A stretch of 64,000 nt of DNA from Solirubrobacterales bacterium (lineage in GTDB: Bacteria; Actinomycetota; Thermoleophilia; Solirubrobacterales; Solirubrobacteraceae): assembly GCA_947474595.1 (NCBI GenBank), contig CANJIV010000007.1:1-64000 (forward strand), read 5' to 3'. This document shows positions 48,409 to 54,666 of the stretch, piece by piece (positions within the stretch are counted from its first letter, which is position 1; the number at the start of each line of letters is the position of its first letter). Both the position numbers and the translations under genes were made by a program. The notes under the pieces were generated by a model. The model was not told the DNA's origin and ran no database searches. It was given only the letters and a program-made list of their open reading frames with translations.

Positions 48409-49356
48409 TCAAAGCATCCGGCCAAACCAACGCAACCCAGCGCCTGCCCCGAGCAGTAGTAGCAGTAGCGCACCTCCGGCAGCAGCAGCGGTAACTTCTC
48501 TTTCCTGCGGGCGCTGACTCAGCTGCGAGCCGAGCTTCGAATAGACCGCGTCGAGCTCGCCGGCACTCTGCACGGCGAACGACTCGCCTCCCGTTGCCTT
48601 GGCGATCTGCTTAAGCGACTCAGGATCGGGTGGGACCGGCGTGGTCCTAACCTTGCCGTTGGGTAGGCGAGTTTTCACCGTCCCTGTTGGAGTGCCTAAG
48701 GCGACGGTGTAGATCCGGATTCCAGCCTTGGCGGCACGCTCGACGGCAGAGGTTGGGTCGCCTCCCGATTTTCCATCCGAGAGCATGATCATCGCCGTCG
48801 GCGGCGCCTTGCCGCCTCCGGGAGGCTTCGCTGCGGTGCGTGCTAGATCGATCGCTGGGCCAGCGAGCGTGGTCTTGTCTGGGCGTAGCGCCGCCAGCGC
48901 GTCACTCACGGCGCTGCGGTCGGTCGTAGGGGTTTGAATCAATCGCGGAGTGTCATTAAAAGCAACCGCTCCCACTTTGACCTGGCGCGGGACTTTAGCC
49001 AGAAAGCGGTCGGCGGCCTTACGAGCAGCATCCATCCTTGTCGGGAAAACATCGGTTGAGCGCATCGACCCAGAGTCATCAGTTACCAGCATCACCGTGG
49101 CCTGCTCGACTCCGACGGCGAGGGTCGCTTGAGGCCGGGCAAGCGCGACTATCAGGGCCGCCAGCGCAAGGCCGTAAAAGACAACCGGGACATGGCGGCG
49201 CCAGCCTGGCCGCTTCGGCGCAACCGACGGAAGTAGCGCGGCTTGGCTAAACGCCTCGCGACCACGCCTGCCCCGCACCTCGGCCCGCGCGTACAGTAGC
49301 GCCGCGAGCGGGATCAAAAGCAGGCCAAGCAGCAGTGCGGGCTGTTGAAAGCTCAC
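48409..49356 (-). CDS. BatA-like VWA membrane protein (copy 2)
   Basis: A 315-residue paralogue of the VWA protein at 43350-44294, with the same plan: two N-terminal membrane segments, a VWA domain with the metal site DDSGSM and MLSDGK, and a C-terminal membrane helix. Shared phrases include ALARPQA, IYTVALGTPTGTV, VPPDPESLKQIAKATGGESF and REVTAAAAG. Here it follows an HtrA protease (one-base TAGTG overlap) rather than MoxR, so it may deliver or tether proteins for the protease, or borrow the nearby MoxR. Confidence 0.85.
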   Translation of the reverse strand: MSFQQPALLLGLLLIPLAALLYARAEVRGRRGREAFSQAALLPSVAPKRPGWRRHVPVVFYGLALAALIVALARPQATLAVGVEQATVMLVTDDSGSMRSTDVFPTRMDAARKAADRFLAKVPRQVKVGAVAFNDTPRLIQTPTTDRSAVSDALAALRPDKTTLAGPAIDLARTAAKPPGGGKAPPTAMIMLSDGKSGGDPTSAVERAAKAGIRIYTVALGTPTGTVKTRLPNGKVRTTPVPPDPESLKQIAKATGGESFAVQSAGELDAVYSKLGSQLSQRPQEREVTAAAAGGALLLLLLGAGAGLRWFGRML

Positions 49357-50513
49357 TAAGGAGTGCCCTGTGGCCGTGTGCCTAGCTCGACCGAGAGGCT
49401 CTTGCGCTGACCGTCGCGCGCAATCTCTAGCTCCACGCGGTCGCCTGGTTTGGCGGTCGAGATAATGGCGATCAAGGCGTCAGGGTCACCAATCTGGCGG
49501 CCGTCAATCGCAACGATCACGTCTTGACTCCGAAGGCCGGCGCGGGCCGCTGGCCCATCCGCCGTCACCGTCTGAATAAGCGCCCCTGGGCCGCTGGGGG
49601 ACGGAGAGCTCGATGCCCCTAGGAATGCACGGTCAATCTTTTGACCATCCTTAAGGAGCGGCACGATCGATCGCACGGTGTTCGCTGGGATCGCGAATCC
49701 TATCCCAAGGTTCCCTTGCGATCCTGCGGTCGCAATCTGTGAGTTCACGCCGATAACGCGGCCGCGGGCATCGAATAGAGGGCCGCCGGAGTTGCCCGAA
49801 TTGATCGGAGCGTCGGTTTGGATGACTTTGTCGATGCTGAAGCCATTGGGAGCCTGTATGTGGCGCCCGATACCTGAAACGATTCCCGACGTCGCTGTCC
49901 GTGCAAGGCTCAGCGGATAGCCGATCGCTACCGCAAGATCTCCGACCTTAACTTTGTCAGAGTCGGCTAGACCTAGTGGTTTGAGTGCCGGAGATCTAGC
50001 AGGATCGACGTGAAGTACGGCGAGATCAGACGAGAGGTCACGCCCAACCACCTTGGCATCAACGGTTGAGTTGCTGTCATCGAACAGCACCTTGACGGTA
50101 GTGGCGTCGCCGACCACGTGAGCGTTAGTAACGATCGTCCCATCGGCATCTACGACAAATCCGGTTCCCGACCCAACGTCGGTGCGTACCTGGACGACGC
50201 CGGAGCTGACGGCGCTATAGATCGCATTGACTTGAGAGGAGCCGACGCCACCCGCGGCAGCGATTGGAAGTGCTTGGATAGTTGAAGTCGCCTGATTGTC
50301 TTCGGCGATCAGCAGACCCGCTCCTGCTCCACCGAGCAATAAGCAGGCGCCTATGGCTACAAACCAGCGGCGACGCACGCCTTGGCGTGGCGGTGGCGCG
50401 AAGGCCGCGGCTGGTGGCTCGACACGGGGTGGTGCGATCTGGTCGGGCTCGAGCCAACGATGATCTGCATCACCTTCGGAGCGGCCAAACCATAGGGGTG
50501 GTTGCTTGGGCAT
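49356..50513 (-). CDS. HtrA/DegP-type membrane serine protease
   Basis: A 385-residue protease: cytoplasmic Pro-rich part (about 1-45), one membrane helix (about 46-68, FVAIGACLLLGGAGAGLLIA), trypsin-like domain and a PDZ domain (about 295-380, SQDVIVAIDGRQIGDPDAL). The triad is intact: His in VTNAHVV, Asp in DLSSDLAVLHV and Ser in NSGNSGGPL. It should degrade misfolded exported proteins. ATG 50513 is preferred; GTG 50522 is the in-frame alternative. Next to a two-component system, as with MprAB-PepD and CssRS-HtrA. Confidence 0.88.
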   Translation of the reverse strand: MPKQPPLWFGRSEGDADHRWLEPDQIAPPRVEPPAAAFAPPPRQGVRRRWFVAIGACLLLGGAGAGLLIAEDNQATSTIQALPIAAAGGVGSSQVNAIYSAVSSGVVQVRTDVGSGTGFVVDADGTIVTNAHVVGDATTVKVLFDDSNSTVDAKVVGRDLSSDLAVLHVDPARSPALKPLGLADSDKVKVGDLAVAIGYPLSLARTATSGIVSGIGRHIQAPNGFSIDKVIQTDAPINSGNSGGPLFDARGRVIGVNSQIATAGSQGNLGIGFAIPANTVRSIVPLLKDGQKIDRAFLGASSSPSPSGPGALIQTVTADGPAARAGLRSQDVIVAIDGRQIGDPDALIAIISTAKPGDRVELEIARDGQRKSLSVELGTRPQGTP

Positions 50514-50787
50514 AGACGGCACCGTGACAGGTACGGCGTCAGCTGAGCATAAGAAAAGATTAGTTGTCGTAGGACCGCATCGAATAAGGTTATTAAGTGT
50601 TTGCAGTGTGGACGCAATAACTTACCGATCCACCCCACGACACCCAAACGCAACCAATGCCCCGCTCAACTCTCTACATAATTGCCGTCGCTTGTGTCAT
50701 GGCGCTCGCCGGACTAGCAGCTGCTGGTCAAGCGAGAATCGCCACGATTGCCCCAGCGATAAACAGTGGCCTTATCGATTCATCCCA
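50514..50787. other. Intergenic region upstream of htrA
   Basis: No supported gene. It contains an AT-rich patch (about 50545-50610) that probably holds the promoter of the leftward htrA gene (TATGCT on the minus strand near 50545) and space downstream of the tRNA-Leu gene. No clear tRNA terminator was found. Confidence 0.4.
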
Positions 50788-50871
50788 TGCCCGGGGTGGG
50801 GATCGAACCCACACGTCCCGAAGGACAGCCGGTTTTAAGCCGACCGCGGTTGCCAATTACGCCACCCGGGC
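50788..50871 (-). tRNA. tRNA-Leu (TAA)
   Basis: 84 nt, class II with a long variable arm (TGTCCTTCGGGACG). Acceptor GCCCGGG/CCCGGGC with discriminator A, anticodon stem GTCGG/CCGGC, loop CTTAAAA giving anticodon TAA, and T arm GTGGG-TTCGATC-CCCAC. No CCA is encoded. It reads the UUA codon, which is rare in GC-rich actinobacteria and sometimes used as a developmental switch. A -10 box TAAACT lies 12 bases before the 5' end. Confidence 0.95.
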
Positions 50872-50889: not shown

Positions 50890-51009
50890 GCCCGACGCGG
50901 CCGCGCTCCGATCTGTCAGTGTTTAGGGTCGAACACGTCTCCCTAACAATTGCTTAACCGCAACTTCTGTGGTGCTGCGGTGTCAGACTCATTAGCGAAG
51001 CCTTTGCAA

Positions 51010-52518
51010 ATGGAAGTCTCCTCCCTTAAATCCCCCGTCTTACCTGCCCTCAACGGGCTCTCTCCGCTACTCCGGTTGGCTCCAGACGACCGCCTTATTG
51101 CGATGATCCGCCGCGGCAACCAAGGTGCTTTCGAGGCTCTGGTCAATCGCTACCAATCCCGACTGCTCTCTTTTTGCCGCCACATGCTGCGTTCTCAAGA
51201 AGATGCTGAGGACGTACTACAGGAGGTCTTTGCATCCGCCTACAGCGCTATCAACGCCGACGAGCGACCGATCAACGTGCGTCCATGGCTATACCGCATC
51301 GCCCGCAACCGCTCCCTCAACCATCTCCGCCGGGTCCAATCGATTGGGGTCGACTCGATGGACATCCACCTCGCAGACCACGGCGCCTCGACCGCAGACA
51401 AAGTTCACAAGCGCGAAGAGTTCCGTCTTCTACTCGCAGATGTCCAGACACTCGCCGAGACTCAACGCACCGCCCTCCTCTTGCGTGAGATCGACGCACT
51501 CTCCTACGACCAGATCGCCGAGGTTATGGAGACTACGGTCCCAAGCGTTAAGTCGCTGCTGGTGCGTGCACGAATTGGCCTAGCCGAAGCATCCGAGGCA
51601 CGCGGCCTCGACTGCGACGCCGTTCGCCTTGAGCTTGCAGAAGTCGCTGAAGGTCTAATGAAAATCACTGCGCCCGTCCGACGTCATCTAAAAGACTGCG
51701 ATCGCTGCTCAGGGTTTCAGGGGCAACTCAAAGCCAACAACAAAGCCTTGGCGATGGTCTTTCCGTTTGGGGCATTTCTGCTCGTTAAGAAATTCCTACT
51801 CACCCATTTCGCCACGAGCGTTAGTGCCGGCAGCGGCGGGGCTGCCACCACGACTGGTGCGGCGGCTGGCGCTGGCGGCATTGCGGCTGGCGGAACTGCT
51901 GTGGCAGGTGGTACTGGGGCGGGCATCTTCTCCGCCGGCATCGCGACCGTAGCCACTAAGACGGCCGCAACACTTGCCGCCGCAGCGATCGTGACCGGCG
52001 GTGCTGCCGAGGTACGTCACCTTGCAGTCAACCAGTCGGCGCATCAGGCAGTAACTGTAATTGCCTCTGCGACACCAGCCGTCGCACCGGTTAAGGCCAA
52101 GCCCGTCGCCCTCAAGCCCAAAAAACCAGTCGTTGTGACGGTCGCCGCGGCGCCAGTTCCCGCAGCGATTCTCTCCATGCCGGTAACCGTTGCCCCCGCG
52201 GCGGAGCCCGTTGCCCTTGCGCCGAGCACCGCCGAAGTTCCCACCGTGCCGCCAGCCACTGCTCCTGAAGTAACCGAGACAGTCACCGAGACAACCGTCT
52301 TGCCTACGGATGTCACCGCGGAGATTACTGCGACAACTACTACTACCGCGACGGAGCCCGTCGCTTCTGGCGAGCTCGTCAACGACACGCCTAGCGAGCT
52401 CGTCGCCGACACGCCTAGCGAGACGATCTCAGATCCGCCAGTGGCCACCGAACCTCCCGCGGGTGAAGATTTGACACCAGTAGAAGGCGCCTCGGCACCC
52501 GTAGATCCAGCCGCCTAG
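51010..52518 (+). CDS. ECF sigma fused to anti-sigma-like zinc finger
   Basis: A 502-residue protein. Sigma region 2 (about 25-95: FEALVNRYQSRLLSFCRHML, DAEDVLQEVF, RPWLYRIARN) and region 4 (about 130-190: LREIDALSYDQIAEVMETTVPSVKSLLVRAR) are complete. Then comes a zf-HC2-like zinc site: a Cys in GLDCDAV and HLKDCDRC, the H-x3-C-x2-C of anti-sigma factors. A hydrophobic, Gly/Ala-rich part (about 250-350) may enter the membrane, followed by a long Pro/Thr/Val tail with an 8-residue repeat (ELVNDTPS, ELVADTPS). The start is uncertain; the frame is open to 50950. Confidence 0.8.
   Translation: MEVSSLKSPVLPALNGLSPLLRLAPDDRLIAMIRRGNQGAFEALVNRYQSRLLSFCRHMLRSQEDAEDVLQEVFASAYSAINADERPINVRPWLYRIARNRSLNHLRRVQSIGVDSMDIHLADHGASTADKVHKREEFRLLLADVQTLAETQRTALLLREIDALSYDQIAEVMETTVPSVKSLLVRARIGLAEASEARGLDCDAVRLELAEVAEGLMKITAPVRRHLKDCDRCSGFQGQLKANNKALAMVFPFGAFLLVKKFLLTHFATSVSAGSGGAATTTGAAAGAGGIAAGGTAVAGGTGAGIFSAGIATVATKTAATLAAAAIVTGGAAEVRHLAVNQSAHQAVTVIASATPAVAPVKAKPVALKPKKPVVVTVAAAPVPAAILSMPVTVAPAAEPVALAPSTAEVPTVPPATAPEVTETVTETTVLPTDVTAEITATTTTTATEPVASGELVNDTPSELVADTPSETISDPPVATEPPAGEDLTPVEGASAPVDPAA
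52372..52419 (+). repeat. In-frame 24-bp tandem repeat
   Basis: Two 24-base units differing at two positions encode ELVNDTPS and ELVADTPS in the tail of the sigma-fusion protein; a third, degraded unit (ETISDPP) follows. Confidence 0.7.
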
Positions 52519-53895: not shown

Positions 53896-54666
53896 TCAAC
53901 CGCCAACGCGGCGACCCTGGCGTTTGGCAAGGGCCAATCCGAGCAGTAGGCCCGCCGCGGCCCCTCCCAGCGCCGCTAGCCAACTTGCCTCGGGTGCGGC
54001 AAGAGGCATGACAGCGACTACAGCGGCGACTATGGCGGCTCCGAGCAAGTCAGAGTCACTCTCCTGGTTGCGATAAAGCAACCGCAGGTCTGGGACTGCC
54101 CACGCTGCTAGTAGTGCGAGCGCCATCCCGTTGCCACCAGCAGACAACTCAGCTGGCCCGACAAAAGCGGCAAGCGCCATACCGGCCACCGCTCCAGCTA
54201 GTGCAACCGCGACCACCGCTGCCGAGCCGCTGCGTCGCTCGATTAGCCAACCGAAGATCGCCACCGTACCAAGTGCAGCAAGCTGGTAACCAGCGCTGTC
54301 GTAGGCAAATGGCGCGCTCACCAGTCGCCACCACTGGCCGTTGGGAGGTCCGAGGATGACAATTTCGGAAAACCCAACCGCACCCGATTTCCAGGCAATC
54401 GAAACCAAGATCGCGGCGAGGATCAGCGTGAAGGTCGCGTAGGGAAGCGCGTCGGGGCGGATGCCTGGTAGTTCACCTCTTCGCAACGGCCCAAGCGAGG
54501 TTCGCCGCGCGCGCTTGGGTTTGGGTGGCGTGATCTGGCCCTCGCGGTCAAGCTTTGGAGCGCGCTTGCGTAGCCGCTTGCCGCAGTAGGGACACTCTGT
54601 GACGTACGGGCTGGCTTGAGAGCCGCAGTTCTTACATACGACGAAGAGATCTGGCCCGCTTGACAT
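53896..54666 (-). CDS. Rhomboid-fold pseudoprotease with zinc ribbon
   Basis: A 256-residue membrane protein. Residues 11-28 form a zinc ribbon (CKNC...CPYC), a basic linker follows, and six hydrophobic segments run from about 77 to 250 in a rhomboid layout, including the WWRLVSAPF motif of loop 1 and LGGAAAGLLLGLAL of the last helix. The catalytic residues are missing: the GxSG serine is Asn179 (AGGNGM), the helix-6 histidine is Ala232 (LAALGG) and the HxxxN of helix 2 is absent. It should bind or guide membrane proteins rather than cut them. Apparently leaderless. Confidence 0.75.
   Translation of the reverse strand: MSSGPDLFVVCKNCGSQASPYVTECPYCGKRLRKRAPKLDREGQITPPKPKRARRTSLGPLRRGELPGIRPDALPYATFTLILAAILVSIAWKSGAVGFSEIVILGPPNGQWWRLVSAPFAYDSAGYQLAALGTVAIFGWLIERRSGSAAVVAVALAGAVAGMALAAFVGPAELSAGGNGMALALLAAWAVPDLRLLYRNQESDSDLLGAAIVAAVVAVMPLAAPEASWLAALGGAAAGLLLGLALAKRQGRRVGG

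What the first reader, a model, noticed from the sequence alone, without database searches (positions are those of the whole stretch)
51010..52518. ECF sigma factor fused to an anti-sigma zinc finger and a long exported-type tail
One chain holds complete sigma regions 2 and 4, then an H-x3-C-x2-C zinc site like zf-HC2 anti-sigma factors, then a hydrophobic Gly/Ala-rich part and a 150-residue Pro/Thr/Val tail with repeats. A sigma factor and its inhibitor in one membrane-linked protein would act as a self-contained sensor, perhaps released by proteolysis. No separate anti-sigma gene is adjacent.
Basis: partly seen in the sequence, partly recalled or inferred. Interest (0 to 1): 0.62.

Follow-up and report, generated by a model that had tools for sequence, protein, structure and literature searches.

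The report
Sigma factor fused to its inhibitor
This actinobacterium has a transcription switch (an ECF sigma factor) that carries an inhibitor-like zinc domain on the same chain; the arrangement resembles the known ECF52 type, but here it is kept across a whole bacterial order and has its own conserved promoter, a motif that may also control genes for secreted proteins.

Summary
Window 51010-52518 (+) encodes a 502-aa protein: ECF sigma regions 2 and 4, a zinc-type anti-sigma (ZAS) domain, two weakly hydrophobic segments and a variable Ala/Pro/Thr tail. In 44 aligned orthologues C-x23-H-x3-C-x2-C is invariant, and profile comparison links the domain to free ZAS anti-sigma factors. 39 of 41 genomes searched in the order have a strong match. 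The membrane claim is only plausible: the segment next to the zinc site is probably anti-sigma helix 4, and the second is far less hydrophobic than true membrane helices, though ECF52-like proteins share the layout. One orthologue (L026) ends just after the zinc site. New here: a conserved ECF-type promoter, GCAACTT-N13-GTGTY, about 50 bases before the start in most orthologues, implying self-activation. Across 232 genomes this motif also precedes signal-peptide genes more often than a reversed control (31/91 against 5/47, p = 0.004; 0.06 in the strictest version), which is suggestive only. Sigma/anti-sigma fusions are already described (ECF48, ECF52, ECF53). This is an order-wide variant that fails one ECF52 feature (no NPCBM domain). 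In-cis inhibition, membrane anchoring and proteolytic release remain inferred.

The parts
50960..50984 (+). conserved ECF-type promoter GCAACTT-N13-GTGTC (-35 50960-50966, -10 50980-50984)
   Evidence: dyad CAAC/AACT...GTGT in 15 of 44 orthologue upstream regions against at most 7 for any dyad in shuffles; 27/44 orthologues match at least 10/11 positions against 0.1% of shuffled sequences
51010..52518 (+). sigma/anti-sigma fusion gene, 502 aa
51139..51339 (+). sigma region 2
   Evidence: Pfam PF04542 E 3.9e-18; same place
51442..51573 (+). sigma region 4
   Evidence: Pfam PF08281 E 1.9e-12
51613..51708 (+). ZAS anti-sigma domain core, C202 to C233 with H226-x3-C230-x2-C233
   Evidence: invariant in 44/44; hhalign 97.3% to a free ZAS anti-sigma profile, shuffled-column control at most 4.4%; AF2 pLDDT about 90 here
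51745..51807 (+). hydrophobic segment 1 (aa 246-266), probably anti-sigma helix 4 rather than a membrane helix
   Evidence: dG +0.40; AF2 helix 254-266, low confidence; Pro in the same place in other fusions
51808..51954 (+). Gly/Ala-rich linker
   Evidence: sequence; low conservation and occupancy in orthologues
51955..52014 (+). hydrophobic segment 2 (aa 316-335), possible weak membrane helix
   Evidence: more conserved than its surroundings; dG about +2 in the family; AF2 helix 318-342, low confidence
52036..52515 (+). variable Ala/Pro/Thr/Val-rich tail
   Evidence: 69-236 aa long and of low identity in orthologues, absent in L026
52367..52414 (+). 24-nt direct repeat, two copies, in the tail

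Best explanation
It is a self-regulated ECF sigma factor with a zinc-type class I anti-sigma domain fused to the end of region 4, a member of a Solirubrobacterales family of such fusions. At rest the ZAS domain most likely folds back on sigma 2/4 and keeps the sigma off RNA polymerase. A signal received through the C-terminal part (probably anchored at or across the membrane), or at the zinc site itself, opens or cuts the inhibitor. The freed sigma then transcribes its own gene from GCAACTT-N13-GTGTY and, probably, genes for exported proteins. Shown by sequence: the fusion, its conservation, the homology of the ZAS domain, a conserved ECF-type promoter in front of the gene. Supported statistically but weakly: the secreted-protein targets. 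Inferred: that this sigma reads that promoter, in-cis inhibition, membrane anchoring, the signal and the release step.
For: Sigma domains; invariant zinc site 44/44; ZAS homology by profile with a shuffled control, and the free-ZAS profile's match to the solved anti-sigma factors RslA, RsiW and ChrR; strong match in 39 of 41 genomes; no adjacent anti-sigma gene and no free zf-HC2 anti-sigma found by Pfam in the own genome. Conserved ECF-type promoter; 24 of 115 distinct perfect sites in 232 genomes are the sigma gene's own promoter. Non-self sites precede signal-peptide genes in 31/91 against 5/47 control sites (p 0.004; 0.009 without the sites that suggested the idea), 20 sequence families including lipase, subtilase, sulfatase, GH5. 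Layout shared with ECF52-like proteins ending in NPCBM and paralogues ending in SH3_3; M50 site-2-type protease genes are in the genome.
Against: Membrane insertion scores are marginal. The tail is variable, and L026 lacks everything beyond the zinc site. Foldseek of the ZAS model found no solved anti-sigma, and the family's own ZAS profile found none in the PDB directly. The promoter motif could also serve paralogous sigma factors. The signal-peptide score is a home-made rule, sites in related genomes are not independent (p 0.06 when held-out and counted once per gene family), and the motif was derived from these same upstream regions. The zf-HC2 model misses the window gene itself, so it could miss free anti-sigma genes too.
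Confidence: 0.6

Rival explanations
1. The protein is soluble: the ZAS domain acts in cis as a cytoplasmic redox or metal sensor, segment 1 is helix 4, and the Gly/Ala part and tail are a disordered appendage that is not exported.
For: Hydrophobic segments score +0.4 to +2; segment 1 is predicted as a fourth helix of the ZAS fold; L026, if correctly assembled, does without hydrophobic part and tail; soluble class I anti-sigma factors are mostly zinc-binding (PMC7406223).
Against: Segment 2 is clearly more conserved than its surroundings; ECF52-like proteins of the same layout score -0.3 and -0.7 there and end in NPCBM, and paralogues end in SH3_3; about half of membrane-bound class I anti-sigma factors bind zinc as well (PMC7406223).
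Confidence: 0.28
2. The ZAS-like domain no longer inhibits; it is a structural or partner-docking part and the sigma is controlled only through its own transcription.
For: Zinc sites can be structural, as in RsiW (PMC7406223); the self promoter is conserved.
Against: All four zinc ligands are invariant; unrestrained self-activation would lock the switch on (inference).
Confidence: 0.1

Closest known systems
ECF52 sigma factors (SCO4117 of Streptomyces coelicolor; PMC5826349, PMC8999054)
   Same: sigma regions 2 and 4, ZAS zinc finger, hydrophobic region, Gly/Ala-rich linker and Pro-rich tail on one chain; ZAS plus following helix align at 97.5% with a mixed profile of ECF52-like and EFGP-type members; autoregulation was also proposed for SCO4117
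   Different: no NPCBM/carbohydrate-binding domain; sigma domain on a separate branch, although a joint clade is not rejected (p-AU 0.38); weaker membrane segment; different order. L094/L095 are taken as ECF52-like from their domains; SCO4117 itself was not compared
ECF48 and ECF53 groups
   Same: described as C-terminal fusions with a ZAS and one or two membrane helices (PMC8999054)
   Different: no sequence of these groups was compared here
IutY (ECF243) of Pseudomonas putida
   Same: sigma fused to anti-sigma, released by proteolysis (PMC8999054)
   Different: iron-starvation cell-surface signalling; not compared by sequence here
Free ZAS anti-sigma factors (ChrR, RslA, RsiW)
   Same: H-x3-C-x2-C helical domain
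   Different: a separate protein there, fused to the sigma here

Membership tests
ECF sigma factors (sigma-70 family) | regions 2 and 4 present | tested here: met
   Pfam r2 3.9e-18 and r4_2 1.9e-12; TIGR02937 79.5 bits over cut-off 42.9
Class I / ZAS anti-sigma domain | H-x3-C-x2-C with an upstream fourth ligand | tested here: met
   44/44 orthologues
Class I / ZAS anti-sigma domain | sequence homology to free ZAS anti-sigma factors | tested here: met
   hhalign 97.3%, E 1.9e-11; shuffled control at most 4.4%
Class I / ZAS anti-sigma domain | three-helix bundle plus helix 4 matching solved structures | tested here: inconclusive
   AF2 gives H1-H3 well and a weak H4; Foldseek finds no solved match
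Class I / ZAS anti-sigma domain | binds and inhibits the sigma | not testable with these tools
   needs binding and transcription assays
ECF52 | zinc finger after the sigma domain | tested here: met
ECF52 | transmembrane region | tested here: inconclusive
   dG +0.4 and about +2; ECF52-like proteins -0.3 and -0.7
ECF52 | proline-rich C-terminal extension | tested here: met
   tail 17% Pro, 20% Ala, 17% Thr
ECF52 | C-terminal carbohydrate-binding (NPCBM) domain | tested here: not met
   no Pfam match after region 4; present in L094 and L095
ECF52 | sigma domain groups with ECF52 | tested here: inconclusive
   not grouped in the tree; joint clade not rejected, p-AU 0.38

The most novel reading that the evidence does not exclude
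A one-protein export monitor: the sigma's own tail is threaded through the export machinery or wall, its state controls the fused inhibitor, and the freed sigma raises its own level and a set of secreted enzymes, across the order Solirubrobacterales.
Probability: 0.1. Interest if true: 0.7.

Novelty: new variant of a known kind. Interest (0 to 1): 0.42.

Why it matters
A sigma factor and its inhibitor on one chain, kept in nearly every examined genome of a poorly studied order, down to genomes of 1.7-2.1 Mb, is a simple switch to study. The conserved promoter motif predicts targets (the gene itself, perhaps secreted enzymes) that can be tested directly. L026, which lacks tail and hydrophobic part, is a natural test of what those parts do.

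Tried and rejected
HtrA-type protease next door (49356-50522) as partner: not found beside any other orthologue in the loci examined. Rhomboid-like neighbour (53896-54666) as the releasing protease: the catalytic Gly-x-Ser-Gly reads Gly-Gly-Asn-Gly and is also changed in the relatives. ZAS fold search against the PDB: nothing significant. Direct PDB profile search with the family's ZAS: no anti-sigma. AU tests on whether the fusions arose once: none rejected, so undecided. Search for a described Thermoleophilia ECF group: none in the papers held; the ECF reclassification paper is not held, so a numbered group may already exist. First extraction of orthologues ignored strand and was redone.

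Full report
Observation. The protein at 51010-52518 is as described: ECF sigma regions 2 and 4, then a zinc site, hydrophobic Gly/Ala-rich stretches and an Ala/Pro/Thr/Val tail. The neighbours are tRNA-Leu on the minus strand at 50788-50871, an HtrA-type trypsin/PDZ protein and a VWA protein upstream, and AsnC-type, metallo-beta-lactamase and rhomboid-like proteins downstream. None is an anti-sigma gene.

Conservation. All 41 genomes tried (own plus relatives of the order) gave a match. For 39 the best E-value is below 1e-95; G008 and G032 have only weaker matches and may lack a true orthologue or be incomplete. In 44 aligned orthologues C202, H226, C230 and C233 never vary; sigma and ZAS regions are well conserved, linker and tail are not. 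Pfam zf-HC2 is not called on the window protein and only weakly on 9 of 18 relatives. A profile of the family's ZAS region aligns with free ZAS anti-sigma sequences at 97.3% probability, E 1.9e-11, against at most 4.4% for shuffled columns. That free-ZAS profile in turn finds RslA, DdvA, RsiW and ChrR among solved structures (the names RslA for 3hug_B and its role are from general knowledge).

Structure and membrane. AlphaFold2 on a shallow alignment gives the sigma regions and the ZAS core with pLDDT about 90, and low confidence beyond residue 250. The ZAS alone is predicted as three helices plus a weaker fourth covering hydrophobic segment 1; PMC7406223 states that helix 4 of class I anti-sigma domains binds sigma 2. 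An insertion-energy estimate of the Hessa type, with parameters from memory, gives +0.4 for segment 1 of the window protein and about +2 for segment 2 in the family, where membrane proteins of the same window give -1.2 to -3.5 and cytosolic ones about +2.3. ECF52-like proteins from 8-Mb genomes give -0.3 and -0.7 for the corresponding last segment. Membrane anchoring is possible, not shown. L026, from a Solirubrobacterales MAG with the same downstream neighbours, ends shortly after the zinc site; a misassembly cannot be excluded.

Family. A tree of sigma domains puts the orthologues and 12 paralogous fusions in one supported group of 28 without free ECF sigmas (97/91). ECF52-like L094/L095 and a second fusion type (L090, L092, L093, L106, L126, L162) lie elsewhere, but common origin is not rejected (p-AU 0.19 to 0.38). 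The three types share a Pro at the start of the segment after the zinc finger, not seen in three free anti-sigmas (a small control). Of the sigma region 2 genes of three relatives, 4, 3 and 2 are followed by a ZAS motif on the same chain; the own genome has two such genes, the window gene and L075.

Promoter. The upstream regions share GCAACTT-N13-GTGTY about 50 bases before the start. The dyad occurs in 15 of 44 regions against at most 7 for any dyad in shuffles, and 27 of 44 match at least 10 of 11 positions against 0.1% of shuffled sequences; the second figure uses a motif taken from the same sequences. The AAC-type -35 is typical of ECF promoters (general knowledge), so self-activation is the natural reading, but no tool here shows that this sigma reads it.

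Targets. In 41 genomes the perfect pattern occurs only 22 times. In 232 genomes of the order it occurs about 120 times against 48 for the reversed control. Of 115 distinct sites, 24 are the sigma gene's own promoter; of the 91 others, 31 have a signal-peptide gene starting within 170 bases, against 5 of 47 control sites (Fisher p 0.0037). The idea arose from 14 sites of the smaller search. Without those the figures are 25/77 against 5/47, p 0.009; counted once per gene family p is 0.015, and with both restrictions 0.058. The 31 fall into 20 sequence families; Pfam names secretory lipase, GH5 cellulase, sulfatase, subtilase, tannase-like, SpoIID, GH2 and arylsulfotransferase among them. The scoring rule is simple and paralogous sigmas may share the motif, so this is suggestive.

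Prior knowledge. ECF48, ECF52 and ECF53 of Actinobacteria are described as sigma factors fused to a ZAS, one or two membrane helices and a long extension, expected to be released by proteolysis; SCO4117 is the characterised ECF52 member (PMC8999054, PMC5826349). The window protein fits that plan but lacks the NPCBM domain.

Verdict. A genuine sigma/anti-sigma fusion of the ECF52 kind, in an order-wide family of its own, with good evidence for a conserved promoter of its own and suggestive evidence for secreted targets.

Noticed in passing
G000:C4:28655-29887 (L075, L164), outside the window: A second sigma-ZAS fusion in the same genome, of a different sigma branch. It and L090, L092, L093, L106, L162 end in the conserved C-terminus EFGP (L102 in EFGF), unlike the window protein; this may be a recognition tag.
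   Followed up: partly
L026:7986-8753: Orthologue that stops shortly after the zinc site, with no hydrophobic part or tail, next to the same AsnC-MBL-u114-rhomboid block.
   Followed up: partly
window 53896-54666: Rhomboid-like protein with a zinc-ribbon start and no catalytic serine (GGNG), also changed in relatives; it looks like a pseudoprotease.
   Followed up: partly
G000:C10:12786-12810 and G000:C1:342522-342546: The only other perfect promoter matches in the own genome (the second with a 14-base spacer) lie upstream of a secreted GH5 cellulase and of another protein with a signal-peptide-like start.
   Followed up: partly
L220, L240 (family f3 genomes): Two f3 sites of the motif precede the same kind of gene (product containing MALRNGLLIHGPTHWAAAVRDGD), a possible lineage-specific target not scored as secreted.
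   Followed up: no
L101, L105: Paralogous fusions of the same order end in an SH3_3 domain, which suggests different sensor ends on one sigma-ZAS body.
   Followed up: partly
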